A stretch of DNA of 64,000 bases, taken from contig OY282369.1 of NCBI GenBank assembly GCA_958295735.1, positions 1,038,161-1,102,160 on the forward strand, read 5' to 3'. Made by a program: the position numbers and the translations under genes. Within the stretch, counting starts at the first letter, position 1, and every line of letters starts with the position of its first letter. The stretch is from an uncultured Candidatus Cenarchaeum sp. Its GTDB lineage: Archaea > Thermoproteota > Nitrososphaeria > Nitrososphaerales > Nitrosopumilaceae. Below the pieces are notes generated by a model, which searched no databases, was not told the DNA's origin, and saw only the letters and a program-made list of their open reading frames with translations. Positions 13,109 through 60,990 of the stretch are shown here, piece by piece.

Positions 13109-14677
13109 CTACCGCCTTCCCAGGCAGGCCAGCGCGCACGCTGCCACGAGCGAGGCGGCCATGCCCGCCGCGCCCAGCGCGGCGTCCGACCCGTACAGCA
13201 CCGCGGAGCCGACGAAGACCCCGGCCGACACCACGGCCCAGGGCGTCATGCCGGCCGCCCCGCCCGATGCGGCGCGGCCGCGCCCCGCGGAGCGCGAGTC
13301 GTCGAGGAACCGCCTCAGGTCAGGCGCGAGGCCCAGCGCGGCATCAACCGACCGGCCGAGCCCCACCAGGAACCGCCGGACCTCCTCGGCGTACGCGTCC
13401 CTGATGAGGTTCTCCTCCACCAGTATGCTGCGCAGCACCCTGACGAACTTGAAGTCGACCTCGTGCGTCTTGTATATGCCCTCTATTATGGAGGCCATCC
13501 TCATGTACAGGGCCAGATGCTTGGGCAGGATGAACGGGAAGCGGCTCATGGTCTTGTTGGCTATCTCCATGAGGCCCTGCACCTCCATCTCTTCGGGCTT
13601 GCGCCCGTGCAGCGCCCTCACGGTAAGCTCTATGGCCTTCTCTATGACGGCGCGGTTGAAGTCGGGCGTGAGCATCCCGAGGGAGCTCATCGCGTCTACC
13701 GTCCGGGACGGGTCCTTGTCCACCAGCGCCAGGTACAGCCGTATCAGCTGCATCCGCGTCTCGGCGTCCAGCCTGCCCACCATCCCGTAGTCGTACAGTA
13801 TGAGCCTGCCGTCGTCGGACACGGAGATGTTCCCGGGATGCGGGTCCGCGTGGAAGACGGCGTGGCGCAGCAGCATGGTGAAGAAGACGCGGTGTATGTC
13901 TATCACGAGCTTGCGCCTGTCTATCCCGCGCCTGTCGAGCTCCGCCACGTCGGTCACCTTCACGCCCGGCACGTAGTCCATGGTGAGCACGTTCCTGGAC
14001 GAGAGCTCCCCGTGCACGGCAGGTATTATCACGTCGGGGTGCCCCCGCAGGTTCTCCCGTATCTGCCGGAGGTTGGCCGACTCCAGGGTGTAGTCCATCT
14101 CCTCGCGGATGGTCTCCACGAACTGGGCCAGCATGGCCCTGGCCGAGAGCCGGAGGTTGGGGTCTATGAACCGCATGGCCAGCGGGAGCATCCTCCCGAG
14201 CACCGCGACGTCCTTCTCCACCTCCTCTTCTATGCCGGGCCGCTTGACCTTCACCACCAGGCGGCGTCCGCCGGCCTCGGCCCGGTACACCTGCCCCAGC
14301 GAGGCGCCCGAGAAGGCCTCCCCGTCCATGCGGTCGAACTTGTCCTCCAGTTTCCCGCCCAGCTCCCTCTCCATGACGGGCCGCACCGCCTCGAGGGGGG
14401 CCGGCGGCACGTCGTCCTGGAGCTTCGAGAGCTCCTCCATGTACGGCTGCGGGAGTATGTCCGCCCGGGAGGAAAGCCACTGGCCGAGTTTTATGTACAC
14501 GGGGCCGAGCTCGATGAACGCCGCGAGGGCCCTGCGCGCGTTCCTCCTGTACCGCGCGGTCTCCACGTCGCGCCCCTCGCGCCTTACCCACTGCCGCCTG
14601 TCCCTGCGCAGCGCCAGCAGGCACGGGAGCAGCTTGAAGACTACGCGGGCCGCCCTAGCAACCGACAGCGCGCCCAC
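13109..14677 (-). CDS. ubiB: ABC1/UbiB (AarF) family atypical kinase
   Basis: The 522-residue product shows the UbiB signature: YIKLGQWLSSRADILP (KxGQ motif), FSGASLGQVYRAE (nucleotide loop), VVKVKRPG (catalytic Lys), HADPHPGN and LYDYGMVGRL (metal-binding loop in place of DFG), then a long helical region and two C-terminal membrane helices (about residues 468-520). UbiB/ADCK proteins are membrane-associated ATPases or kinases linked to quinone and lipid biology. Archaeal members may support menaquinone-type electron carriers, but the substrate is unknown. It starts 23 bases inside the upstream gene on the same strand (14655-15128), so the two are likely cotranscribed. Confidence 0.88.
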   Translation of the reverse strand: MGALSVARAARVVFKLLPCLLALRRDRRQWVRREGRDVETARYRRNARRALAAFIELGPVYIKLGQWLSSRADILPQPYMEELSKLQDDVPPAPLEAVRPVMERELGGKLEDKFDRMDGEAFSGASLGQVYRAEAGGRRLVVKVKRPGIEEEVEKDVAVLGRMLPLAMRFIDPNLRLSARAMLAQFVETIREEMDYTLESANLRQIRENLRGHPDVIIPAVHGELSSRNVLTMDYVPGVKVTDVAELDRRGIDRRKLVIDIHRVFFTMLLRHAVFHADPHPGNISVSDDGRLILYDYGMVGRLDAETRMQLIRLYLALVDKDPSRTVDAMSSLGMLTPDFNRAVIEKAIELTVRALHGRKPEEMEVQGLMEIANKTMSRFPFILPKHLALYMRMASIIEGIYKTHEVDFKFVRVLRSILVEENLIRDAYAEEVRRFLVGLGRSVDAALGLAPDLRRFLDDSRSAGRGRAASGGAAGMTPWAVVSAGVFVGSAVLYGSDAALGAAGMAASLVAACALACLGRR

Positions 14678-15128
14678 CGCCGCGTTCCGGCCGGCGCCGG
14701 CGCTGCCCTTCCCGGGCCGGCTCCCGGCGGTCGCGCAGGGTTTTCTTGATCTTCTTGGCGGCCTTGTACCCCAGCCAGCCGGCGGCCGCGGCCGACGCGA
14801 GGGCGGCGGCGGGCCGGGGGCGCCCGCACCTCAGGGCGGCGGGCGCCCCGTACGCGGCGATCCCCGCCAGCGCGGCGCACGCGAAGCCGGCCAGCACCTC
14901 GGGGGCGTCCTCCATGAGGTGGCCCGCCAGGTTCGCGCGCGGGTCGTGCTTGTCCGCGTGCACCGCATAGTGGCTGCCGTACTCCCTGACGTGCAGGCTG
15001 CCGTACCGGTACTGCCTTTTCGCGCCCCTCGGGTCGCCCATCCAGGTCTCCTCCACCCACTCCGGCATGAACTCGCGCACCTCCAAAGGTACCCTGATCT
15101 CCTCGGCCAACTGCCGCGGGATTCCCAC
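14655..15128 (-). CDS. Hypothetical protein, cotranscribed with ubiB
   Basis: A 157-residue product of no family I recognise. Residues 1-70 are soluble (MGIPRQLAEEIRVPLEVREF, then WMGDPRGAKRQYRYGSLHVR and HYAVHADKHDP), and residues 78-125 carry two hydrophobic segments (VLAGFACAALAGIAAYGA and AALASAAAAGWLGYKA) followed by a basic tail. It overlaps the start of ubiB, so a membrane role linked to UbiB is plausible inference. The TATA box at 15131-15141 sets ATG 15128 too close for the usual 25-base spacing by a few bases, so a slightly later start is possible. Confidence 0.6.
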   Translation of the reverse strand: MGIPRQLAEEIRVPLEVREFMPEWVEETWMGDPRGAKRQYRYGSLHVREYGSHYAVHADKHDPRANLAGHLMEDAPEVLAGFACAALAGIAAYGAPAALRCGRPRPAAALASAAAAGWLGYKAAKKIKKTLRDRREPAREGQRRRRPERGGGRAVGC

Positions 15129-15130
15129 GA

Positions 15131-15141
15131 TCGATATATTG
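15131..15141. promoter_or_regulatory. AT-rich TATA element between divergent transcripts
   Basis: TCGATATATTG is the only AT-rich block between the minus-strand gene at 15128 and the candidate RNA on the plus strand; on the plus strand it lies 10-25 bases before the proposed RNA 5-prime end. Confidence 0.45.
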
Positions 15142-15147
15142 GTTTAC

Positions 15148-15437
15148 GGATCGCGGGGGCACGGGGCCGCCGCCCGTCCCTTCAGGGCAGGCGCGGAAGC
15201 GGGCTACGCCTGACTGGGCGACGGGCGCGGCGCCGGCGCTTCCCGGCGCTCGCGCCGGGCGGGGCGGGCCGCCCGGATCGGGCGCGCGGCCTCTCGCGCT
15301 GCCGCGGTGCGGGTTGGGGGAGCGCCGGTTCAAGCCCGCGCGGCGGAGGCTGTGGCTTAACGCGCCGCACACGCGTGCCGGCCTACCGCGCGCGGGCCTG
15401 GTGATCACTCCCCCCGGGGGACAGAACCCCGCTCGAT
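15148..15437 (+). ncRNA. rnpB: Candidate structured RNA, possibly RNase P RNA
   Basis: No credible ORF covers this 290-base stretch, yet it has a TATA element upstream and a terminator-like hairpin with T-run directly after it. The 5-prime end GATCGCGGGG pairs with the 3-prime end CCCCGC-TC-GATC, closing the whole molecule, and the 3-prime region GTGATCACTCC...GGGACAGAACCCCG resembles the conserved ACAGAA (CR-V) region of archaeal RNase P RNA; the length also fits. A long internal hairpin GCCCGTC...GACGGGC (15172-15226) is clear. However, I cannot find a clean copy of the conserved GAGGAAAGUC (CR-I) element, so the assignment is tentative. It could be another structured RNA. Confidence 0.4.
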
Positions 15438-15438
15438 C

Positions 15439-15457
15439 GAAAAACGCCGCGTTTTTC
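15439..15457 (+). terminator. Hairpin and T-run after the candidate RNA
   Basis: GAAAAACG-CCG-CGTTTTTC forms an 8-bp hairpin ending in five T residues, directly after the closing stem of the candidate RNA. Confidence 0.5.
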
Positions 15458-15637
15458 ATGCGTGAAACTTTGTGGTTGTCTGGATGTTCAAGCCAGCCGC
15501 TCGCCTACGTCTGACGCGAATCAGATCAACGAGCGCATTCTCGCGCCTGTGACCAGCAGGTGCGTGGCCGCGCGCGATTGCGAGAAATCCATCCTGCGAG
15601 CTCAACGCCGGACAGATTGCCGACAGGCCACGGTGCG

Positions 15638-16483
15638 CTATTCGTCTTGTAAAAACCCTTCGTCGATGCCTTTTACAGAATAGGTGGCAACGTTGACAAC
15701 TCCAAGATCGTGGTCGTACATGTAATGCGCCAGCATTTTCCCGTCTATCAGTATGATGTTCGCGTCAACGACGCTTTCCACATGCCTGCGCGCATCAGGC
15801 GAAAAATCAGATGCCGTGACGAGGGCCCCCCGCTTGGACTTGGTGCCCATCAGTGTTCCAGTGAATATCTTAACTTGATCCAAGGACACCGTAGCGGACT
15901 GCTGTTTGGTCTGCAGGTGGATTTCGTCGAACCCAATCTTGTCCATTTTGAGCACGGCATCTACCACTCCGCCGCCCGGCATGGCCGGCGCGTGATCTTC
16001 GATCCCATACCCCATTTTTCGTACGAGTCGTATGACCAGACGGTCAAAGGATTCCGGGGAGGTTTTTCTGATCCTGTCCAGCAGTTCGGTTTCTGCCTTC
16101 TGCCTTATGTTGTCGTAGGCTTTCTTGATTTCTTCTTCCGGCGGCTCATCCTCTCGCTTAGATTCATCTATCCGCTCGATGGCAATCTTCCACACGTCCT
16201 CGTTAGACAGGGAACGCGACAATGCGTCTGTGCCGGCGTCGGTGATGGTGATGATTTTGTCATCCACGCGAACAAACCCAGCCTGCTTTAACATCCAGAC
16301 GGCCCAACCCGTCCTTGTCCTAAGAAAAGTTGTATGTCCGCTTGGCTGGAGCCGCTTGCGCTCTTCCTCTGGCAGGTTGAACCTGTCGGCAAGCTTAGAC
16401 GCTAGATCTTTGTATCGAAGCCCGCTGCTGCCTTTGCATATGTCCAGAATAGGAACCACCATCTCTTTGGGCTTGGGTATCAC
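15638..16483 (-). CDS. mrr: Mrr-type restriction endonuclease
   Basis: The 281-residue product has a winged-helix N-terminal domain (residues 1-75, PSGHTTFLRTRTGWAVWMLK) as in Mrr_N, and a C-terminal Mrr catalytic domain: ESFDRLVIRLVRKMGYGIED, GGGVVDAVLKMDKIGFDEIH and LQTKQQS, matching the Asp ... Gln-x-Lys core of the Mrr PD-(D/E)XK fold. The usual GxDGGID motif appears as GGGVVDA. Mrr enzymes cut methylated foreign DNA (type IV restriction). The start is GTG 16483, 25-30 bases after a good TATA box. Its GC content is visibly lower than that of the core genes, suggesting transfer. It lies 227 bases downstream of the HamB-like helicase on the same strand with its own promoter. Confidence 0.85.
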   Translation of the reverse strand: MIPKPKEMVVPILDICKGSSGLRYKDLASKLADRFNLPEEERKRLQPSGHTTFLRTRTGWAVWMLKQAGFVRVDDKIITITDAGTDALSRSLSNEDVWKIAIERIDESKREDEPPEEEIKKAYDNIRQKAETELLDRIRKTSPESFDRLVIRLVRKMGYGIEDHAPAMPGGGVVDAVLKMDKIGFDEIHLQTKQQSATVSLDQVKIFTGTLMGTKSKRGALVTASDFSPDARRHVESVVDANIILIDGKMLAHYMYDHDLGVVNVATYSVKGIDEGFLQDE

Positions 16484-16506
16484 GCCTTGCTAGCGATTCT
16501 GCCTCC

Positions 16507-16514
16507 TATAAATA
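16507..16514 (-). promoter_or_regulatory. TATA box for mrr
   Basis: TATTTATA on the minus strand, about 27 bases before GTG 16483, fixing that non-ATG start. Confidence 0.6.
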
Positions 16515-16710
16515 CCATCCATGGCGCAGTTTATCGGATGGTTGTGCCCAAAAATCGTCTAGAATGTTATTATTCGCGGCGTTTGGGCGGTTTTGTTTGA
16601 CAGCGTGAATGAGAGTCTTGGAATCGCGACCGGACTCGGCCCTGCCTCGCCGCCGAAAGGCCGCGCAACAAGCCCGCGGCGCGGCGTGGCGCGTCCCGGA
16701 AGATGCTGGC

Positions 16711-19635
16711 TCAGGCCGCTTCCGTCTTGGCCTGCGGGGCGTTGCCGCGCGCGTTCTGCATGTCCCGGAACAGCGACCTGGCGGCATCCGGTCTGCCGGG
16801 AAACGCCGAGACGATCTCGCCCTCGGATATGGAGCGCATGTCCCTGCCCCTGCCGGCGCCCCGGGATATCGCGATCGCCGAGTTCCGGCCCGCGCGGTCC
16901 AGCCCCGCCTCTAGGATCTCGCGGGCCAGCGCGTCGCGGCTTCCGATCCTGCAAAAGTCGGCCACTTTGCGGATCTCGCCCGCGAGCTCTTCGCCTTCCG
17001 GCGCGCCGCAGGTTTGTTCCGCAAGGGACGCCGCGTGCATCAGCGTCTGGTGCGCGGCCCTCGCCATTTCCTCCCCCGCCGGCGGCACCGAGCCCGGGTC
17101 AAGGCCGCAGGCCTCCAGGATCTCGGAGTCCGTATACGAGTTGATCCAGTAGTGCAGCAGGCTTGCCGCCCGCGCCGCATCCCCGCGCTCGGACGGCTCG
17201 AGCGGCGGGCCGCCTGCCCGAAACAGCGCATCTGCCGCCTTTTGCACGCCGTCGGGAACCTTGATTCCGTCGGCACCGTCTGCATGGCCCCGCAGATCCG
17301 CGGACAGGCAGGCCAGAACCAGAATCGCGTCCGCACGGCAGTCCGCATCCGGTTCTTGCGCAAGCATGCGCCGCAGGCCGGCAATGATGGCGGCCGCAGA
17401 GTCCGGCGGCAGCATGGACTTGCTGACCGACCGGCCCGCGCCCGTCGCGCGCAGGCGGCCGCCGTCGCGGGCGAGCATGCCGCAGCCGACAAGGACGTCC
17501 AGGGACGATTCCACCGAGCGGGAGATGCCGGCCGCGTCATTTTCCGAGCGCATCAGGCCCCCGAACCACGTGCCGCGCAGGCTTGACAGGATCTCCCGCG
17601 CGTCGGTTCCGGGATGATCCGCGACGTAGTTAAGCAGCTGCGAGCGCAACGCCGCAGCGGCCGGCCCGGGGCCGCCCGCGCTGCGGAGGGGAGACCGCAG
17701 GGGAGCGGGCTCCCGCCAGAACGCCTCCACGTATTCGTCGAGCTCGGCCTCCGTGGCGGCGAGAACTATCGCCTCGGCCGTCTTGTGGTACCCCGGCCTT
17801 CCCGCCCTGCCCGCGATGCTGCGGTACTGCCTGTTTTCCATCGTTTTTTGTGCGCGGCCGCGGCAATATTTTGCGTCGAAAAAGAGCGCCGTCTTGATCG
17901 GGAGGATCATCCCTTCCGCCAGCGTCGGCGTAGCCACCACCACGTCCGCCTCCCCGCCCCGTACGGCGTCCTCCACCGCCCGCCGGTAGCGGTCCGGCAG
18001 GCCCTCGTGGCAGTATGCGACGCCGCATTCGAGCATGGATGCGAGATCCAGCCCGAACTTCGGGAGCGCAACTTCGATCGCTCTTACCTTCTCCGCAGCT
18101 TTCGCGTAGGCCGGCTTCTTTGCCTGCAGCGCGTCCGCGACATCCGGGTTGTCCGGGTCGGGCGAGCGGATGCGTTCCGCGATGTCCCGGGCCAGTTTTG
18201 ATGCGTCCCCGCGGCTATTCGCCGAGATCAGGATCGCCTCGCTGCTCACTACGGCGCGCATGGCGAAGTGCGCCGCGGCCGCCGTTTTTTTCTCGCGCGC
18301 GGATGCGCCGTCTTCTGCAAGCAGCGGGACGGCCTCGGCATCCCCCTCTCTGCGATGCAGCGTTCCGCCTAGGAGGATTCCCTCGCTGACCTTCGTGCAC
18401 TCCCACTTGCTCGACACCCCGACCGCGCCCGCCCAATCGCACAGCCGGCCCCGATCGTTTTCGCCGAGCAGCCCGGATATGCCGATCAGTTGTGTCGTGC
18501 GGCGCCCTTGCAGGAATCCGTCCAGCAGCATCGTGGCCGCCAGCCCGCGCGACTCGTCCTCAAGTACGTGGAGCTCGTCGGCTATGACGCTGCGGAGGCG
18601 CGACGGATCTATTTTTCCTCCCCTGACGAGCGCGTCCATCTTTTCGTACGTGGCCACCACCACGTCGCACTCCGACACGCCGTCGTCCTGGTCGGTCCTG
18701 TCCCCGTTTGATACGGCTATCCTGTGTGCGGAACCCAGCACCCCGCGCAGGTCGTCGTACGCCTGCTCGGAGAGGGGGCGCGTGGGCACCAGGTACGCCA
18801 TCTGCGTGCCGGCTTTGAGGCGCCCCGCCGCAAGGCACGCCAGGAACGACTTGCCCGTCCCGGGCGGCGACGAGTACACCATGCTCCGCCCTTCCAAAAG
18901 CCCGCCGCCGACGGCGGCCTTTTGCGGCGGCCACAGCTCAGTGAATTTGTTGCGGCGCAGCGCGTTTTTCGTTTCCTTCGGCACGTCCAGATTCAGCACG
19001 GAGCGTTCGGCGATGCTGCGGATCAGAATCATGCAGAGCGCGGAGGTGATCTCGATCCACGGATCCGGGGAGAATGTGTCGATCTCGTCGCGAAACTTGC
19101 TCGCGGTCGCGCTTATGTCGGATATCCTGTCCCCGTCCGCCCTGTCCAGGGCGTCTAGCAGGTCGCTAAACAAGCTTACCGTGGAGAGCAGCACGATGTA
19201 GTCGTCCTGGATGCCGTCGCCCACCGTCTTCTCGAAGCGTTCTTTATGTTTGCGCAGATTGGACACCACCCGGGACAGGCCGGCGGCAAGCGGTTTGCTT
19301 TTCCGGAGGCCGATGTGGCCGAAAGCCTCGGTCAGGGATCTTGAGTTCGCCTTTGAGAGCACTATGTACTCCAGGCTGGGATGATCTAGCGTGTCCAGCA
19401 GCCTGTACAGTCTTTGCGCATCATAGGGCTCGTTTGCTATGTCGTACGCCAGGGCCGCGCAGAGCGTGCCGAAGAACTCGTACCGTCTGGAGATATCGCG
19501 TGACTCTACCAGGTCGTCCAGCACCTCCGCTGCCGACCTGAGCGAGTCGCGATCGGTGTCCGCGGTGCGGAGGATTTCCATCAGCGAGTCTCCAAACTCT
19601 CTCCGTGGAAGAGGTTCACGCAGCATGCTCTGCAT
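16711..19635 (-). CDS. Ski2-like DExH helicase, HamB-like (Hachiman/AbpAB type)
   Basis: A 974-residue superfamily 2 helicase. Visible motifs: I SSPPGTGKSFLACLAAG (about 249), Ia VPTRPLSEQAYDDL, II IADELHVLED (DELH, about 353), III region IGISGLLGE, V VVATPTLAEGMILP, VI YRSIAGRAGRPGY (about 605). The DELH box and GRAGRPG ending are typical of Ski2-like helicases, including HamB and AbpB. About 240 residues of helical N-terminal domain precede the motor and 330 residues follow it. It overlaps the upstream PD-(D/E)XK gene by 20 bases. That pairing matches Hachiman (HamA nuclease plus HamB helicase), in which the helicase senses aberrant DNA and releases the nuclease. Family assignment is by architecture and motifs only. 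Confidence 0.72.
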   Translation of the reverse strand: MQSMLREPLPRREFGDSLMEILRTADTDRDSLRSAAEVLDDLVESRDISRRYEFFGTLCAALAYDIANEPYDAQRLYRLLDTLDHPSLEYIVLSKANSRSLTEAFGHIGLRKSKPLAAGLSRVVSNLRKHKERFEKTVGDGIQDDYIVLLSTVSLFSDLLDALDRADGDRISDISATASKFRDEIDTFSPDPWIEITSALCMILIRSIAERSVLNLDVPKETKNALRRNKFTELWPPQKAAVGGGLLEGRSMVYSSPPGTGKSFLACLAAGRLKAGTQMAYLVPTRPLSEQAYDDLRGVLGSAHRIAVSNGDRTDQDDGVSECDVVVATYEKMDALVRGGKIDPSRLRSVIADELHVLEDESRGLAATMLLDGFLQGRRTTQLIGISGLLGENDRGRLCDWAGAVGVSSKWECTKVSEGILLGGTLHRREGDAEAVPLLAEDGASAREKKTAAAAHFAMRAVVSSEAILISANSRGDASKLARDIAERIRSPDPDNPDVADALQAKKPAYAKAAEKVRAIEVALPKFGLDLASMLECGVAYCHEGLPDRYRRAVEDAVRGGEADVVVATPTLAEGMILPIKTALFFDAKYCRGRAQKTMENRQYRSIAGRAGRPGYHKTAEAIVLAATEAELDEYVEAFWREPAPLRSPLRSAGGPGPAAAALRSQLLNYVADHPGTDAREILSSLRGTWFGGLMRSENDAAGISRSVESSLDVLVGCGMLARDGGRLRATGAGRSVSKSMLPPDSAAAIIAGLRRMLAQEPDADCRADAILVLACLSADLRGHADGADGIKVPDGVQKAADALFRAGGPPLEPSERGDAARAASLLHYWINSYTDSEILEACGLDPGSVPPAGEEMARAAHQTLMHAASLAEQTCGAPEGEELAGEIRKVADFCRIGSRDALAREILEAGLDRAGRNSAIAISRGAGRGRDMRSISEGEIVSAFPGRPDAARSLFRDMQNARGNAPQAKTEAA

Positions 19636-20413
19636 TCTCCGTTATTCCGTGCAGTCCCGCCACAAAAAGCAGCAGGGCCGAGACGCAGCGTGGAGCGGAC
19701 AGGTACTTTCCGAGGTTCAGCCGGGACACGAATGCGTGGTGATCGACGCCGAGACTGTGCGCTTTGTCCGTTGCAAGATCTACCTCCACGCATATGTTGC
19801 CCTCTTCGCGGCATCTCTCTATTGTCGCGATCCTCCGATCTATGTACCTCGTATCCGCGCCGCCCGCGACCAGCAGGCGCCTATGCTCAAGGTATTTCCA
19901 ATACAGCTTGGCCAAAAAAGCGTTCGTTTTTTTGTAAGTGTGGTTCTGAAGGCCCACCCGGAGGGTATCCAACATATCTGATGCCTTGTCGTTGCTGCGG
20001 CTCATTGACACGTGGGGATGCTTGCATTCTACAGCAACGAGGCGCCCCGCATGCTCAAAGATCAGATCCACGCCGGAAGATTTGCTGGTTCCGGTATCCT
20101 TCCATTTTATGTGGAACGGAGCCTGCTTCAGGCATTTTGTGTGGTACATCTCGGAGGCCGCCTCCCCGAGCAGGCCCGCGATGTCGTCCGCATCGATGTA
20201 CACGGGATTCAGAGGTAGCGGAGTGTTGCCGCCACCCAAGTGTGACGAATGGGGCGAGTTGTTCTTTCTTAGAATCTTTTGGCGCTTTATGCGCAGAACT
20301 TCCCCCACGACGGAGCCCAGCACGTCGGCATCTTCCGGTCCCAGAGACATCTCGGACGCGTCAAACCGCCATGCGCCGCCGCCGGCGCCGAACAGCGTGT
20401 TGCAGGTTGTCAC
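19616..20413 (-). CDS. PD-(D/E)XK nuclease, HamA-like (DUF1837-like)
   Basis: A 265-residue product with a nuclease core SSGVDLIFEHAGRLVAVECK: Asp116, then Glu129-x-Lys131 in the usual spacing of a PD-(D/E)XK active site. Before it, a helix (IAGLLGEAASEMYHTKCL) and KWKDTGTSKS fit the HamA/AbpA pattern of a small domain followed by a G-x-D ... E-x-K strand pair. In Hachiman the nuclease is held inactive by HamB and degrades DNA on activation; that is known for the family, not shown here. GTG 20413 is supported by a TATA box at 20435-20444. GC content is lower than in neighbouring genes. Other two-gene nuclease-helicase systems cannot be excluded. Confidence 0.62.
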   Translation of the reverse strand: MTTCNTLFGAGGGAWRFDASEMSLGPEDADVLGSVVGEVLRIKRQKILRKNNSPHSSHLGGGNTPLPLNPVYIDADDIAGLLGEAASEMYHTKCLKQAPFHIKWKDTGTSKSSGVDLIFEHAGRLVAVECKHPHVSMSRSNDKASDMLDTLRVGLQNHTYKKTNAFLAKLYWKYLEHRRLLVAGGADTRYIDRRIATIERCREEGNICVEVDLATDKAHSLGVDHHAFVSRLNLGKYLSAPRCVSALLLFVAGLHGITENAEHAA

Positions 20414-20434
20414 GCGTACTGTGTGCGGCCCCCA

Positions 20435-20444
20435 CTATATAAAG
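20435..20444 (-). promoter_or_regulatory. TATA box of the HamA-HamB-like operon
   Basis: CTTTATATAG on the minus strand, about 26 bases before GTG 20413. Confidence 0.6.
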
Positions 20445-20589
20445 AGGCTTGCGAGATGCGCGAAGTCACGCGCCTACGGGTCACAGACATGAAGGCGCTT
20501 TCGCCGATCTGGATTCATGCCCGGAGGAGGGCAACCGGCCCGGTACGGCGGGCCCGGCGCGGCCGCCAGCGCGCGCGGCGGCCGTGCGT

Positions 20590-28386: not shown

Positions 28387-29574
28387 TCAGCGGCACGGGG
28401 GCCGCTTCAGCCGCGCCTCGCGCCACCCGGCCATCATGGATCCGTACAGGCCGGTGCCGGCGGCTATCTCCTTGAACAGCAGGACGAGGTTGCGCAGGCC
28501 CGCCACGATGTTGAATATCCTGTTGAAGTGCTCCGGGGTCCCCCTGAACGGCCTGCGGAGTATCTGGTTGTTCTTCATGTCCGCGTAGGTGTTCTCGATC
28601 TTGTACCTCTTCTTGCTGATCCCCCCGTTCCACTCCTTTTGCGCGGCGGTCAGATCTTTCTTCGCGGTCCTTTTCGCGGGGTTCACGGGGATGATTCCGG
28701 GAAGGCGCTTCTCGGATCCCTGGAACCCCGAGTCCCCGATCAGCCTTATCCTCTCCTTCTCGGGCGTGCCCGGATCCGCCATGCTAGGGAACGTCTCGGC
28801 CAGCCCTTCCAGCATCACGATGTCGTTCCTGCTGCCGGGAAGCGTCTCGCTCATGTGCACGGTCACCGTCCTCCGGTTGATGACCGTCAGCGTGTTCGTG
28901 CAGTGCGTCTTGTTCTTGCGGGTATAGTAGTCCCTCTGCTCCTCCTCGTCGGAAGGCCGGACGTGGGGCACCCGGGTGCCGTCGACCGTCAGGTCGCCGC
29001 CCTTCTTGCCCGGCATGAACTTCTTGCGCTCCTCGTCGGTCTTGCAGGCAGCTATCTCCTTGGAGATGTTCTTGGGCGTGGGCAGCACCTCCTCCATCAC
29101 CCGCTCGTTCATCTTCAGGTACCTGGAGACGGAGCCCTGGTCCACCGCGAACAAGCCGGACAGCTGCTCCTGCGTCGGGTCGGCCTTGATGCGTATCAGG
29201 GAGAGGTACACGGCGTGCTCGTACTCCAGCTTGCACCTGTTGCCCCGGGCCGACGCGGTGCTCGCGCAGTTCCTGAACAGCGGGGTCTTGTTCATGCGCT
29301 CGATCGCCTCTGTATAGTAGGCCACCACGAGCTTGATCTCCTCCGGCGCCAGCCCGGTCCAGCACTTCGACTGCACGGGGTCGTTCATGATGCGGTGCAG
29401 CCACTCGGCCGAGTGCATGCGCGCGGGATCGCCGCACTGGAGCCTCCTTTCGGCGGCGGGCGACTTCCAGAGCGCATTCTCGGCCTCCAGTTTCGCCTTC
29501 AGCCGCTTTACCTCGTTCTCGGACATGGCGAGCCGCCGCTTGAGCGAGTTTGGCATGCCATCCTGTCGTGACAT
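28387..29574 (-). CDS. IS5-group transposase (DDE_Tnp_4-like)
   Basis: A 395-residue transposase. A helix-turn-helix region (PTQEQLSGLFAVDQGSVSRY, about residues 133-152) precedes an RNase H-like core with DLTVDGTRVPHVRPSDEEEQ (first Asp), IRLIGDSGFQG (second Asp) and YKIENTYADMKNNQILRRPF (Glu), the spacing and motifs of the DDE_Tnp_4 group within the IS5 family. The N-terminal 50 residues form a charged coiled coil. ATG 29574 is the first start. I could not find convincing terminal inverted repeats or a target duplication by eye, so the limits of the element are unknown. It appears to separate two parts of a nuclease-like gene. Confidence 0.88.
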   Translation of the reverse strand: MSRQDGMPNSLKRRLAMSENEVKRLKAKLEAENALWKSPAAERRLQCGDPARMHSAEWLHRIMNDPVQSKCWTGLAPEEIKLVVAYYTEAIERMNKTPLFRNCASTASARGNRCKLEYEHAVYLSLIRIKADPTQEQLSGLFAVDQGSVSRYLKMNERVMEEVLPTPKNISKEIAACKTDEERKKFMPGKKGGDLTVDGTRVPHVRPSDEEEQRDYYTRKNKTHCTNTLTVINRRTVTVHMSETLPGSRNDIVMLEGLAETFPSMADPGTPEKERIRLIGDSGFQGSEKRLPGIIPVNPAKRTAKKDLTAAQKEWNGGISKKRYKIENTYADMKNNQILRRPFRGTPEHFNRIFNIVAGLRNLVLLFKEIAAGTGLYGSMMAGWREARLKRPPCR

Positions 29575-33102: not shown

Positions 33103-33127
33103 GTTGCGGGCGACATGCGCATCGGCG

Positions 33128-35104
33128 TTGGTATTTTTGGAAAAATTGACCTTCGCGGGGCTGTTTTCGTACGCGGAAGAATCCACGGTGTTGCTTTCAA
33201 AGCGCGCCGTTATAGTGGGCCCCAACAACGCGGGCAAATCAAACTTGTTCCGGATCATACGCATCTTAGCAAACGCGCTTTACCGCGGGGAGCGAAATCT
33301 ACAGGCCTCAGAGATGTCACAGTCTGCAGTCAAATCCCACATAAAGGCAGAGATCTTCCTCTCGTCGGCCGAGGTTGACATACTTGTAGACTATTTTGCG
33401 TGTGGAAAAGGAGACAACAATGCAGGGTTGCAAATGATCCGCATGCCTAACCGAAAAAGCATTGCAGATTCCTCAGGCAGCATAACGATAAAGGTCGAGT
33501 GGAAGAGGATGCAGGACGGATCGGGCGGCGATCCCTACATAGAGATACAGTTCCCAAAATGTGGATTCAAATGCGGCGGCAATCTTGGACCCGATTACTT
33601 CAAGATAGGGCCTCTTGGTGAGGGGCCGTATACTGATCACTCTGACCCAGCGCAATTCAACAAGTTCATAGCGCGCATTTTTAAGGACAATGACCCGATG
33701 GAGGGTTCTGCGGCGTTTTTTAGAGGTTCAGGCGGCGTAGCTCACCGGGCAGTCGAGTTCATGACTACGTCTAGCCGCTGGAGGAATTCTAAATCGCGAT
33801 CAAAAATTCAAGATTTGATGAATTATTTGGGTGCCAATGACGGCACCACGGTTAGTCTCCCACGCATGCTTGGCACGATCCTGGAAAAGGGAATCGTTCA
33901 CGCTACGGAGAATAGAAACCTCGTGCAAGACAAAGACGCAGAAACATTCCAAAATCTCTCTCTTTTCGGAAAACGGCTCGAAGATTTTGAGAGCGGCTAC
34001 AACCGCGCGTTGATGGATCAGATCCAAGCGCATAGCTTGTCACATGCGAATGCGTTGGAAGACGACGGTAGCAACATTGCGCGGTTTCTCTTTAACTTGA
34101 AAAACTCGCCCCGGCGTTCGGAAACGAAACGCTACAAAACGATCAAGGAGCAGTTTGAGCGATTGTTCCGCTCCCAAAAATTGACCATCGAGTCGATCTT
34201 GGAGAGATATACCATCGATAAGCCGATGGCAGGCATCAGAGAAGTTTCTAGGCCCAGCATAGTGGTCGTGGACAAAAAGCTGCCGGAACACCTACCGCTG
34301 GCACACGTGGGCTCGGGAGCACGCAACGTGATCTACATGCTGGCGGCCGTCTATGGCACCAAGAATTCCATAGTGATGCTGGACGAGCCCGGGATCAACA
34401 TGCACCCCACAATGCTACAGGCCGTCATGGAGGGGATGGTCGGGCAGAACTCGGACAACCAGCTCCTTGTAGTGACCCACTCCCCGGATCTCTTGCGCAA
34501 CGAGGCGATCCGCGAAAAGGCTGAAATAATATGCGTTAGAAATACCCGCGGACAGAGCAAAATTTGCCAAGATGAGGCCACAGCGAGGCAAGGCAATAAC
34601 GATCTTCGTGAAATTGGACGCCTGATCGACCCCGGAGTGTTTTTTGCCAGGCGCGCCATCCTAGTAGAGGGCGAATCCGATCGTGTCGTGTTGGGTTTCG
34701 CGGAAGACATGGCCGCCAAAGATCCCAAATACAACCTGCCGCTTAACGACATAGCCGTCGTCGGCGTTAACGGCGACGGTAATTTCAAAAAATACAGAGA
34801 GTTGCTGCACAAATACTGCATCCCGCTGGTGATCTTGGCAGATGGGGACACGTTAGGACGTACATTCGAAGATAAAGAAGTGTCGTGGATTTCCAAAAGC
34901 GGGGTCAAGGGCAAAGGGCCCATATACCTCATAAGGGGCAAACTTGAGGTGTTTATGAAAGAGTTAGATCCGGACATATTCGCCAAAGCCAACCGTGGAG
35001 GTAAAATCTGCGTTGCAAACAAGTTCGTGAATATGATGCGGGAAAAAAATCCGGACCATGTCCCTCCTTCCATCGTCGAATTTTTGGATCGATGCGTGAA
35101 GTGA
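33128..35104 (+). CDS. old: OLD-family nuclease (AAA ATPase plus TOPRIM)
   Basis: About 658 residues. The ATPase half has Walker A VGPNNAGKSNLFRIIRILAN near the start, the ABC-like signature region LAHVGSGARNVIYMLA, and Walker B VMLDEPGINMHPTMLQ followed by VVTHSPDLLRNEA. The C-terminal half is a TOPRIM domain: ILVEGESDRVVLGFAEDM, then LVILADGDTLG with its acidic metal ligands. This is the overcoming-lysogenisation-defect architecture, known from phage P2 Old and from GajA of Gabija. No UvrD-like GajB gene is adjacent, so this is a class 1 (single-gene) OLD. TTG 33128 (LVFLEKLTFAGLFSY) is preferred over the longer frame from 33104, since the family begins with such a strand and the TATA spacing fits. 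GC content is far below that of the host genes: recent transfer is likely. Confidence 0.88.
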   Translation: MVFLEKLTFAGLFSYAEESTVLLSKRAVIVGPNNAGKSNLFRIIRILANALYRGERNLQASEMSQSAVKSHIKAEIFLSSAEVDILVDYFACGKGDNNAGLQMIRMPNRKSIADSSGSITIKVEWKRMQDGSGGDPYIEIQFPKCGFKCGGNLGPDYFKIGPLGEGPYTDHSDPAQFNKFIARIFKDNDPMEGSAAFFRGSGGVAHRAVEFMTTSSRWRNSKSRSKIQDLMNYLGANDGTTVSLPRMLGTILEKGIVHATENRNLVQDKDAETFQNLSLFGKRLEDFESGYNRALMDQIQAHSLSHANALEDDGSNIARFLFNLKNSPRRSETKRYKTIKEQFERLFRSQKLTIESILERYTIDKPMAGIREVSRPSIVVVDKKLPEHLPLAHVGSGARNVIYMLAAVYGTKNSIVMLDEPGINMHPTMLQAVMEGMVGQNSDNQLLVVTHSPDLLRNEAIREKAEIICVRNTRGQSKICQDEATARQGNNDLREIGRLIDPGVFFARRAILVEGESDRVVLGFAEDMAAKDPKYNLPLNDIAVVGVNGDGNFKKYRELLHKYCIPLVILADGDTLGRTFEDKEVSWISKSGVKGKGPIYLIRGKLEVFMKELDPDIFAKANRGGKICVANKFVNMMREKNPDHVPPSIVEFLDRCVK

Positions 35105-57977: not shown

Positions 57978-58200
57978 CTGCGTGGGGGTAAATATACGCA
58001 GCAATAAACTTACCCATTCGAGCCGTTCCGGGACGGCCAGGAAAGCCCGCTCCGGCCGAACGCCGTCGCGCAGCGCGGGATTTCGCGGGCGTGCCCGGAA
58101 TGCTTGCCGATCTGCTTCAAAAGCGCGGGATTTTGCGGCCCTGCTTGGATCTCAAAGCCGCGGTTGCGAGGCAAATCGCCTCAAAATCGTGAGCTATTAC

Positions 58201-60838
58201 CGTATTCGCTGTCCGTGGAAAGGCCGTAGCTGATGTCCGGCGTGCACAAGGTCCACCACACGTACTGGCCCGGCTCGAGCGCTTGGTTCACCTTGAAATC
58301 GTACGAATGATCGTCGCCGGCGCAGGGGCTCGAAGCGGCCGGGTTTCTGCCCGCATCGCCGCCGCTGCCCGAGCCCCCCGCAAAGACCTTCTGCTTGTAT
58401 GCGACCCCGTTGTTCGGGTATTGGAAGCCGTCGGCGCCGTATAATGCCGCTACCGCATCCATATTCAGCCTGGAAGGCGCGTTGGGTTTGTTTCCCCTAT
58501 AGTCGCATGTTTGCATGTCGTTCTCTACGCTGCACATCATGTCTGCTACGTTGCCGAACGTGTGGCCCACGCCCATCGCATGGATGAACTCGTGCGCAGC
58601 CGTGGCTACGACGTCTTCATGCGAGCGATCTGTTTTCTGTACTTGTGTGCACACTATTGTGCTGACGGCCCCCTCCGGCGGCTCTCTGCGGTTGACGCCA
58701 TATGCCAAACCTGCCCAATCCGCGCAACCCTCTTCGCCATGTATCCCATATGCCGACTGGTATGTCACCAAATTCATGGAAATGTCCGGCTCTCTGCTAA
58801 ATTTATCTCCGGGACGGACGATTTCGGAAGTGACTGCCCAGTCGCCGCCGTGCTGCGCGGCCATGCGTATTGACCACATTTGAAGTCCTTCCTGCACGGC
58901 GCCCATGTACTTCTTGACATCGTCGACTTCGTCAGGGTGCGGCGTTATCGCCACGTGGGGCGGGCTCCGAAACTGCTTGTTCCAGTAGATTTCCATGTAC
59001 ACGTCGTCCCCGGGAGCCGCGGCAGGGGCTTTTCGGGCCTCCGCGATGCCGATCGTCTGCTGTTTCGTCGTGAGCCTCTTGTGGGTGCTGTCCCCCTCGA
59101 ACACCGCAAAAATTTCCCCAGCGCCGTACAGGGGATCCACGGGCACCGCCGTCCAAGTCGTGGAGAACCGGCCGTATTGGTTAACGTACGCGGTAGCCAA
59201 AAGATCGTCGCGCCTCAGGTCGTCCTCGTCCTTGATGTACACGATCGAGCCCTTGGCAGGGGAGTCGTGCAACCGCAGCGTGCCCGAAAAAGTGACGCGA
59301 TCCCCCACCTTGGCCGTGTCCGGAATCCTATCCAGCGTCAGGGAACCGCCGCGCTTTACGACATACATCTCCTGGTTGGCCGTCCTGGATCTCTCGTACG
59401 ACGAGCTGCCGGTGAACAGCGCGTACACGTCGAATTCCGTCTCCAGATCCGCCGCGGCGGCCTTCCACGGTATAGAGAACCGCCCGGTGCCGTCGGTCCT
59501 GCCCCAGGCAAGCCTCTCGTCCTTGGCTAGCGGATCGTCCTCCATTATCCTCACGACCGCGTTGCTCACGGGCCAGCCCCCCGACGTGAGCTTCCCGGTG
59601 AACGTGACGCGATCCCCCACCCAGGCCGCGTCCGGGATCTTATCCAGCGTCAGGGAACCGCCGCGCTTTACGACATACATCTCCTGGTTGGCCGTCCTGG
59701 ATCTCTCGTACGACGAGCTGCCGGTGAACAGCGCGTACACGTCGAATTCCGTCTCCAGATCCGCCGCGGCGGCCTTCCACGGTATAGAGAACCGCCCTGT
59801 GCCGTCGGTCCTGCCCCAGGCAAGCCTCTCGTCCTTGTCTAGCGGATCGTCCTCCATGATCCTCACGACCGCGTTGCTCACGGGCCATCCCCCCGACGTG
59901 AGCTTCCCGGTGAACGTGACGCGATCCCCCACCCAGGCCGCGTCCTGAATCCTATCCAGCGTCAGGGAACCGCCGCGCTTTACGACGTCCATCTCCTGGT
60001 TGGCCGTCCTGGATCTCTCGTACGACGAGCTGCCGGTGAACAGCGCGTACACGTCGAATTCCGTCTCCAGATCCGCCGCGGCGGCCTTCCACGGTATAGA
60101 GAACCGCCCGGTGCCGTCGGTCCTGCCCCAGGCAAGCCTCTCGTCCTTGACGAACGGATCGTCCTCCATGATCCTCACGACCGCGTTGCTCACGGGCCCG
60201 TCCCCCGACGTGAGCCTTCCGGTGAACGTGACGCGATCCCCCACCCAGGCCGTGTCCTGAATCCTATCCAGCGTCAAAATCGTGGAATAGTCCCTTATGC
60301 TGTTGGCGGGCGCGCCGCCGGACGCTCCAGAATGGCGGGACGAGACGTCGACGCCGTACGTGGAGCTGCGCGCCTCGCTTACGCGCTGACTGCCGCCATA
60401 CGTGGCATAAAAGTCCCACTCCCCGCTGCTGCGCGGTTTTGCGGTCCACGCGACGCGGAACTCCCCGCGATCGTCGGTGAACGCTTTTCCGATCACCGTG
60501 TCGCGGCCGAAGCTGACGTCGTCCTTTATGTATACGGTGGCGCCTGGTACGACGTGGTTCGAGGTGGTGGTGAGCTTGCCCGAAAAGACGACGGCATCCC
60601 CCGTCCTTATCTGCGGCGGCACGGGATCGAGCCTCAGCACGGCCGTGTACGACTGCGCCTCGGCCGGGACCGCCGCCAGCGGCACGGCGGCAATGCAGGC
60701 AATCGCGACCACGCACACCGCGGCGGGGAGGGGCGGCGGCGGGGAGAACGGCCACGAGGCGCGCGCTGCGCGGCCGCGCGGCTTTGCCGCTCCGGGGCAG
60801 TCGTGGTGTGCGGGCGCCTCGCCGCGCAACGCGGGCAT
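58201..60838 (-). pseudogene. Secreted matrixin-like metalloprotease with Ig-like repeats, interrupted by IS66
   Basis: Starting at ATG 60838 (TATA box about 25 bases upstream), the product has a signal peptide (about residues 30-62), five related Ig-like beta domains (about 65-575; each contains GDRVTFTGxLTS or similar and a D-G-x-G-x-F motif), and a zinc protease domain with ATAAHEFIHAMGVGHTFGNV (HExxHxxGxxH) near residue 750. The three middle Ig-like domains are almost identical 104-residue copies. The reading frame enters the IS66 element at 58200 and stops at 58181, losing the last 70 residues. The intact protein would be an extracellular protease or adhesin-protease, fitting surface interaction with a host or neighbouring cells. 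Confidence 0.85.
59331..60266 (-). repeat. Three 312-bp near-identical tandem repeats (Ig-like domains)
   Basis: TCCAGCGTCAGGGAACCGCC recurs at 59331, 59643 and 59955, and its start again at 60267, an exact 312-base period (104 codons). The copies differ by only a few bases, while the outer Ig-like domains of the same gene are well diverged. Confidence 0.95.
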
Positions 60839-60859
60839 GGCGCGCGGCGGGGCTTCCGA

Positions 60860-60867
60860 GTTATAAG
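60860..60867 (-). promoter_or_regulatory. TATA box of the metalloprotease gene
   Basis: CTTATAAC on the minus strand, about 26 bases before ATG 60838; it rules out the longer frame that starts at 60985. Confidence 0.6.
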
Positions 60868-60912
60868 GTTGTAGTACGCGCTTGCGCACGAGGCCGGCAA
60901 CCCCCGCTCCGC

Positions 60913-60948
60913 GGGCGCGAACCCGGATCGGCGAAATCGTTTTCGCGC
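60913..60948. repeat. Dispersed 36-bp motif, copy 2
   Basis: GGGCGCGAACCCGGATCGGC ... GTTTTCGCGC, matching 9798-9833 with two differences and the same complementary ends. Confidence 0.75.
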
Positions 60949-60990
60949 GTGCGGCTGACGGATCCGTGACCTCGTACGCGCTCACGTGCG

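What the first reader, a model, noticed from the sequence alone, without database searches (positions are those of the whole stretch)
15638..20413. Hachiman/AbpAB-like two-gene defence module with an Mrr nuclease downstream
Seen: a 265-residue protein with D116 ... E129-x-K131 overlapping by 20 bases a 974-residue DELH/GRAGRPG helicase; an Mrr nuclease with its own promoter follows on the same strand. Known: HamA (DUF1837 nuclease) plus HamB (Ski2-like helicase) is the Hachiman layout. Inference: a defence island of three nuclease-related genes in an ammonia-oxidising archaeon, where this system is little described. The proteins are divergent enough that it could be a new subtype.
Basis: partly seen in the sequence, partly recalled or inferred. 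Interest (0 to 1): 0.68.

Follow-up and report, generated by a model that had tools for sequence, protein, structure and literature searches.

The report
Archaeal nuclease-helicase pair resembling Hachiman
In an archaeon related to ammonia oxidisers, two overlapping genes encode a DNA-cutting enzyme and a DNA-unwinding motor that are built like the bacterial anti-virus system Hachiman, but the motor is closer to the repair helicase Hel308, so this looks like a new and rare relative rather than a standard member.

Summary
A 265-aa D116/E129-x-K131 nuclease overlaps a 974-aa Ski2-like helicase by 20 bases; a separately promoted Mrr gene follows. The pair is accessory. Six relatives keep the flanking genes 2.4-3.4 kb apart, against 8.1 kb here. 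Only four genomes with the nuclease (own included) turned up in all samples searched. The pairing is conserved in five intact copies, plus one degenerate copy and a helicase remnant in the same genome. In other archaea it lies beside viperin-kinase or restriction-modification genes.

It works like Hachiman: DxnExK effector nuclease, Ski2-like sensor helicase, and an all-helical N-terminal helicase extension in the place of HamB's HamA-binding domain. It is not a canonical member. The nuclease fails the HamA/DUF1837 cut-off; only distant homologues give weak HamA matches. In a rooted tree the helicase falls with Hel308 (99/98), outside both HamB groups.

Best reading: a divergent, Hel308-type HamAB-like defence module. 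The window copy carries two substitutions at otherwise near-invariant helicase residues, so its activity is uncertain. Mrr shares the insertion but is not a conserved part.

The parts
19616..20413 (-). Predicted PD-(D/E)xK nuclease (HamA-like), 265 aa, GTG start
   Evidence: ORF and translation; motif GE84..K103-W104..G114-x-D116..E129-x-K131-H-x-H134 invariant in five homologues
20021..20068 (-). Codons for D116 to K131 (D116 20066-20068, E129 20027-20029, K131 20021-20023), predicted active site
   Evidence: invariant in all five intact homologues, lost or changed in degenerate copy 3 (D116C, K131R)
16711..19635 (-). Ski2/Hel308-like SF2 helicase with N-terminal extension (HamB-like), 974 aa
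   Evidence: Pfam DEAD 66.5 bits and Helicase_C over cut-off; Hel308 and HamB profile matches; tree
18991..19635 (-). About 215-residue all-helical N-terminal domain of the helicase, absent from Hel308; position of HamB's HamA-binding NAH domain
   Evidence: AlphaFold2 model, all helices, pLDDT mostly 55-80; Hel308 matches begin at residue ~212; NAH described in PMC12278908
18847..18861 (-). Walker A GTGKS (residues 259-263)
18568..18579 (-). Motif II DELH (residues 353-356)
17791..17829 (-). Motif VI QYRSIAGRAGRPG (residues 603-615)
19616..19635 (-). 20-base overlap of the two genes (probable translational coupling)
   Evidence: overlap also in L028, L029, L030 and L037
20436..20443 (-). TATA box TTTATATA of the two-gene operon, 23-30 bases before the GTG (leaderless-type)
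   Evidence: only perfect match in the window
15638..16483 (-). Mrr-type (type IV) restriction endonuclease, 281 aa; same insertion, not a conserved part of the module
   Evidence: Pfam Mrr_cat/Mrr_N, PADLOC mREase_IV 1e-41; absent beside copies in L027-L030 and L037
16507..16514 (-). TATA-like TATTTATA upstream of Mrr (own promoter)
15130..20589 (.). Approximate extent of the insertion between the COG1361-like gene (ends 20590) and the 157-aa ORF plus ABC1/UbiB kinase (14655-15128; 13109-14677)
   Evidence: flank order intact and uninterrupted in G001, G022, G018, G033

Best explanation
A two-gene nuclease-helicase antiviral module that works like Hachiman (HamAB) but forms its own divergent subtype with a Hel308-type helicase. 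The leaderless operon makes the small nuclease and the helicase in coupled amounts. The nuclease docks on the all-helical N-terminal domain of the helicase and is held inactive. The helicase surveys DNA; a free 3' end or abnormal DNA made during viral replication or genome damage loads into the motor, ATP hydrolysis moves the N-terminal domain, and the DxnExK nuclease is unleashed on DNA, ending the infection (probably with the cell). Shown here: the genes, motifs, conserved pairing, accessory and mobile distribution, and defence neighbourhoods. Inferred: complex formation, docking site, DNA-end sensing, nuclease release and the antiviral outcome; these steps are taken over from HamAB (PMC12278908).
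For: Same order and overlap of nuclease and helicase in five intact copies in four genomes of the phylum. D116..E129-x-K131 plus GE84 and K103 invariant in five nucleases, the same motif order as HamA ('D-E(X)K', E138/K140). Weak but repeated HamA link: PF08878 19.1 bits, E=0.0012 for P0005 over the catalytic region; one family member hits a PADLOC HamA model at 0.014; hhalign of the family against two HamA proteins p~0.002, above all 191 unrelated decoy ORFs. Helicase: intact motifs I, II and VI; PADLOC HamB 2e-27 to 3e-43, in P0008 collinear to the C-terminus; all-helical N-terminal extension as in HamB. Foldseek aligns HamB 8vx9_B (1.6e-18) over more columns and with higher TM per query (0.34) than Hel308 (0.24), on a mediocre model. 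Defence context: viperin plus thymidylate-type kinase beside it in G115 and G357; N4/N6 methyltransferase plus BsaWI nuclease in G189; Mrr here. Accessory: insertion into conserved synteny; present in 3 of 300 order genomes (own included; a fourth match, G129, was rejected as spurious) and 2 of 398 sampled phylum genomes; own copies 2 and 3 lie beside transposases. Low GC of the nuclease (57%) against 68% for the window.
Against: The nuclease is below every curated HamA threshold. The AlphaFold model of the nuclease failed (pLDDT 39.6), so its fold was not tested. Homology of the N-terminal domain to HamB's NAH is unproven (hhalign p 0.017-0.059; but two accepted HamB groups also fail against each other, 0.12). 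The helicase tree puts it with Hel308. The window copy has H542C and N577I at otherwise near-invariant helicase positions, and dN/dS between the two intact own copies is about 0.5, so the copy may be weakened. No viral or plasmid relatives of the nuclease. No phage data.
Confidence: 0.68

Rival explanations
1. A DNA-repair or replication-fork module: a second Hel308-type helicase recruited with a nuclease for fork or end processing, not for defence.
For: Helicase core, winged-helix, ratchet and HLH domains are collinear with Hel308 (hhalign 2.5e-17; NCBIfam PRK02362 262 bits); the tree places it with Hel308 at 99/98.
Against: Very sporadic (3 of 300 order genomes), inserted in a conserved locus, beside viperin, RM or Mrr genes, near transposases in own copies 2 and 3, three copies in one genome with decay of one; the genome keeps its own Hel308 (G000:C1:1591337).
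Confidence: 0.15
2. A decaying relic: the module was once functional but this copy no longer works. This concerns the state of the copy and is not exclusive of the best explanation, which concerns the kind of system.
For: Window helicase departs at T258P, H542C, N577I and G620A from columns at least 88% identical in 34 helicases; dN/dS ~0.5 against own copy 2; own copy 3 has lost Walker A lysine, motif II, part of motif VI and nuclease D116/K131, and a fourth locus keeps only a fragment.
Against: Full-length overlapping frames, all nuclease-invariant residues intact, Walker A K262, D353-E354, R610 and R613 intact, perfect TATA box.
Confidence: 0.3
3. A canonical Hachiman or AbpAB system.
For: Two-gene layout; HamB profile matches; weak HamA matches in distant homologues.
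Against: PF08878 and PADLOC HamA not reached by the window protein; helicase outside both HamB groups; a canonical Hachiman exists separately in G115, 85 kb from the variant; nuclease is a single 265-aa protein without the Cap4-like domain of AbpA.
Confidence: 0.1

Closest known systems
Hachiman (HamA/DUF1837 nuclease + HamB Ski2-like helicase), E. coli ECOR31, PDB 8vx9
   Same: Gene order, overlapping or abutting genes, DxnExK nuclease, Ski2-like helicase with DExH motif II, all-helical N-terminal helicase domain, profile similarity to HamB along the core and C-terminus
   Different: Nuclease below HamA thresholds; helicase phylogenetically with Hel308; retains the Hel308-type C-terminal domains; 974 aa rather than the 1174 aa of ECOR31 HamB
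AbpAB (E. coli)
   Same: Nuclease plus Ski2-like helicase pair
   Different: AbpA carries an N-terminal Cap4-like nuclease fused to an inactive HamA-like domain (PMC12278908); here one short protein with an intact DxnExK motif
Hel308/Hjm (archaeal repair helicase; PDB 2va8, 2p6r)
   Same: RecA1, RecA2, winged-helix, ratchet and HLH domains collinear; best sequence and fold hits
   Different: No N-terminal 215-aa helical domain; Hel308 is present in nearly all relatives, this helicase is not
PADLOC candidate PDC-M23 (M23B helicase)
   Same: Related Ski2-like helicase with N-terminal extension; two copies in the same genome
   Different: M23B branches with HamB2; the window helicase matches the M23B model only as well as HamB
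Mrr type IV restriction enzyme
   Same: Window gene 15638-16483 is a plain member by Pfam
   Different: Separate gene, not part of the conserved pair

Membership tests
Hachiman (HamAB) | HamA (DUF1837, PF08878) at curated cut-off | tested here: not met
   P0001 no hit; best family member P0005 19.1 bits, cut-off 25
Hachiman (HamAB) | D-E(X)K nuclease motif in the small protein | tested here: met
   D116, E129, K131 invariant in five homologues
Hachiman (HamAB) | Ski2-like SF2 helicase with intact motifs I, II, VI | tested here: met
   GTGKS, DELH, AGRAGRPG; Pfam DEAD and Helicase_C over cut-off; note N577I and H542C
Hachiman (HamAB) | N-terminal helical (NAH) domain of the helicase that binds HamA, absent in related Ski2 helicases | tested here: inconclusive
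   An all-helical ~215-aa extension is predicted and absent in Hel308, but sequence homology to NAH is not shown
Hachiman (HamAB) | Helicase groups with HamB | tested here: not met
   Groups with Hel308 at 99/98 on a tree rooted with an Lhr-like outgroup. HamB itself is not one clade there; the AU p=0.0005 against a clade of this group with HamB1 and HamB2 alone may depend partly on M23B branching with HamB2
Hachiman (HamAB) | Two-gene operon, nuclease first | tested here: met
   All five intact copies
Hachiman (HamAB) | Antiphage activity dependent on both active sites | not testable with these tools
   no experiment
AbpAB | AbpA fusion with N-terminal Cap4-like nuclease | tested here: not met
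   265-aa protein; only a weak Mrr_cat match, E=0.19
Hel308 orthologue | Curated NCBIfam Hel308 score | tested here: not met
   171 bits against a cut-off of 1200; PRK02362 262 against 887
Hel308 orthologue | Conserved, near-universal and syntenic in relatives | tested here: not met
   Locus empty in six relatives by flank distance, in four of them by gene order; own Hel308 elsewhere
Mrr type IV restriction endonuclease (gene 15638-16483) | Mrr_cat and Mrr_N domains over cut-off | tested here: met

The most novel reading that the evidence does not exclude
Coupling of a HamA-like nuclease to a Ski2-like DNA helicase is older than, or arose separately from, HamB: this lineage is a nuclease-helicase immune system on the Hel308 branch itself, so that the Hel308/HELQ repair helicases are nested among immune nuclease-helicase systems and could descend from, or have donated to, genome-integrity-sensing immunity.
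Probability: 0.2. Interest if true: 0.72.

Novelty: new variant of a known kind. Interest (0 to 1): 0.5.

Why it matters
Hachiman was proposed, from genetic and functional similarity, to be related to Hel308 (PMC12278908). This module looks like a natural intermediate: Hel308-type motor and C-terminal domains, a HamB-type N-terminal helical domain, and an overlapping nuclease with a HamA-like active site. It gives a concrete object for testing whether DNA-integrity sensing by a nuclease-helicase pair works with a Hel308-type motor. It adds a defence module that current profiles miss to archaea of the Nitrososphaeria; PMC12988326 reports generally low defence prevalence in Thermoproteota apart from RM, CRISPR-Cas and argonautes, and names under-representation of archaea in current models as one possible reason.

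Tried and rejected
Canonical Hachiman or AbpAB: rejected on HamA thresholds, the tree and the lack of a fusion. Housekeeping Hel308: rejected on distribution and the empty site. Mrr as third component: rejected, absent beside the other copies. G129 weak nuclease hit: stop inside and no helicase in the stretch read, taken as spurious. G028 C74 helicase: helicase match without a nuclease match, not a module. hhalign of the N-terminal domains: uninformative even between accepted HamBs. Viral contigs and plasmids for the nuclease: no relatives. The first, unrooted trees were read with care: a midpoint root could not tell whether the group is sister to Hel308 or to HamB, so an outgroup tree was made. 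Direct or inverted repeats at the ends of the insertion: nothing beyond GC-rich chance matches. The paper on archaeal Ski2-like helicases (PMC10946056) is not held.

Full report
Observation. Both strands of 12-25 kb were listed. The nuclease (19616-20413, minus, GTG) and helicase (16711-19635, minus) overlap by 20 bases, and D116, E129 and K131 are correct. The operon is headed by the only perfect TTTATATA in the window, 23-30 bases before the GTG; Mrr has its own TATTTATA. A sigma-70 scan finds nothing, as expected for an archaeon.

Families. The nuclease hits no Pfam, PADLOC or NCBIfam model convincingly; the best is Can1 at E=0.029 in PADLOC and Mrr_cat at E=0.19 in Pfam. The helicase has DEAD and Helicase_C over cut-off. 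It matches PADLOC HamB at 2e-27 and PDC-M23B at 5e-27, and matches Hel308 models far better (PRK02362 1e-77) but far below their cut-offs (262 of 887 bits). Mrr is a plain Mrr.

Relatives. The window lies in a 3.17-Mb single-contig genome, G000. A search of 61 relatives finds a Hel308-type helicase in nearly all, at about 30% identity and mostly starting only at query residue ~205-215; the genome's own Hel308 is at 1591337. Full-length homologues of the window helicase occur twice more in G000 (70% and 66%). The nuclease is much rarer: among 300 genomes of the order it occurs in G000, G115 and G189; among 398 of the phylum it adds G357; 257 genomes of G357's class and 70 of G115's family add none. 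The fourth match in the order search, G129, is taken as spurious. Each real hit is followed by the helicase with overlapping frames. Own copy 2 is intact in frame and active-site residues, though motif II reads DEID. Own copy 3 is degenerate: Walker A GTGKS to GAGRS, motif II to DGID, motif VI deleted, nuclease D116C and K131R. A fourth place holds a helicase fragment.

Accessory status. In G001, G022, G018, G033, G027 and G029 the flanking FtsX permease and ABC1/UbiB kinase lie 2.4-3.4 kb apart; in G000 they are 8.1 kb apart. In G001, G022, G018 and G033 the permease, ABC ATPase, COG1361-like gene, 157-aa ORF and kinase are in unbroken order. The extra ~5.4 kb carries the pair and Mrr. The nuclease (57% GC) and Mrr (52.5%) stand out from the window (67.7%). 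Copies 2 and 3 lie next to DDE and rve transposases.

Defence context. In G115 and G357 the pair lies near a viperin (PADLOC pVip 1e-18) and a thymidylate-type kinase, with a shared 370-380-aa gene of unknown family; in G189 it lies beside an N4/N6 methyltransferase and a BsaWI-type nuclease. G115 also carries a canonical Hachiman pair 85 kb away. G000 has no canonical HamA.

Is the nuclease a HamA? The family shares the order GE - K(W) - GxD - ExK with HamA; Tuck et al. describe a D-E(X)K motif and need E138 and K140 (PMC12278908). P0005 reaches PF08878 at E=0.0012 (19.1 bits, cut-off 25), over the catalytic region. One member reaches a PADLOC HamA model at 0.014. Profile comparison with HamA proteins of plasmids gives p~0.002 for two of them, above 191 unrelated decoy ORFs, and nothing for the rest. 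Homology is likely but not proven. The AlphaFold model failed.

Helicase anatomy. Beyond the core, the C-terminal half is collinear with Hel308 (2.5e-17), and about a hundred of its columns also match DUF1837-type HamB (1.8e-4), which itself does not match Hel308. Before the core is a ~215-residue domain predicted all-helical, in the place of the NAH domain that binds HamA and is absent from related Ski2 helicases. Foldseek ranks Hel308 first by E-value but aligns HamB over more columns; the model is mediocre (mean pLDDT 60), so this is only suggestive. The N-terminal profiles are too shallow to prove homology.

Phylogeny. The five module helicases are one clade (100/100). In unrooted trees they lie between the HamB/M23B groups and Hel308 plus Hel308-like bacterial and haloarchaeal helicases. 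Rooted with five helicases that look like the Lhr family, they group with Hel308 and those helicases at 99/98, outside both HamB groups. An AU test rejects a clade of this group with HamB1 and HamB2 alone (p 0.0005), perhaps partly because M23B branches with HamB2; a clade with Hel308 alone is not rejected (0.197). So: HamB-like architecture on a Hel308-type motor.

Mechanism. By analogy with HamAB, the helicase holds the nuclease through its N-terminal domain, senses DNA ends or damage, and releases DNA cleavage. The layout, motifs, conserved pairing and accessory behaviour are shown; binding, sensing and outcome are inferred. A caution for the window copy: H542C and N577I at near-invariant positions, and dN/dS ~0.5 against copy 2. 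Copies in G115 and G189 are better test objects.

Verdict. A real, rare, mobile nuclease-helicase module of probable defence function, Hachiman-like in layout and probable action, not a member by the tested criteria, and best called a new variant. Mrr is a neighbour in the same insertion.

Noticed in passing
window 33104-35104 (+): OLD-family ATPase-TOPRIM nuclease (Pfam OLD-like_TOPRIM over cut-off; PADLOC GajA 7e-26) in a low-GC stretch (about 52%), a second likely defence gene 13 kb from the module.
   Followed up: partly
G000:C1:166000-178000 (L070 183-3029 and 4258-7530, +): Two adjacent PDC-M23B-type helicases (PADLOC 9e-120 and 2e-271) in the same genome.
   Followed up: partly
window 28387-29574 (-): DDE_Tnp_4 transposase.
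   Followed up: no
L071 3201-3682 (-): Fourth, fragmentary remnant of the module helicase (residues ~682-842, 48% identity).
   Followed up: partly
L029 9395-10540 (+) and L037 6673-7794 (-): A 370-380-aa gene shared by G115 and G357, next to the viperin and kinase genes; the G115 copy hits no Pfam or PADLOC family. Possibly a new part of the viperin cassette.
   Followed up: no
L029 4721-5524 (-) and L030 5178-5993 (-): A 267-271-aa protein (looks like a flavin/F420 luciferase-like enzyme, not searched) directly after the helicase in both Nitrososphaera genomes, not seen in the other copies.
   Followed up: no
L048, L049 (plasmids): Hel308-like helicases whose N-terminus matches the PADLOC caspase model, a sign that this helicase branch is used with several effectors.
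   Followed up: no
window 58181-60985 (-): 934-aa protein with Ig-like and transthyretin-like domains, probably a surface protein.
   Followed up: no
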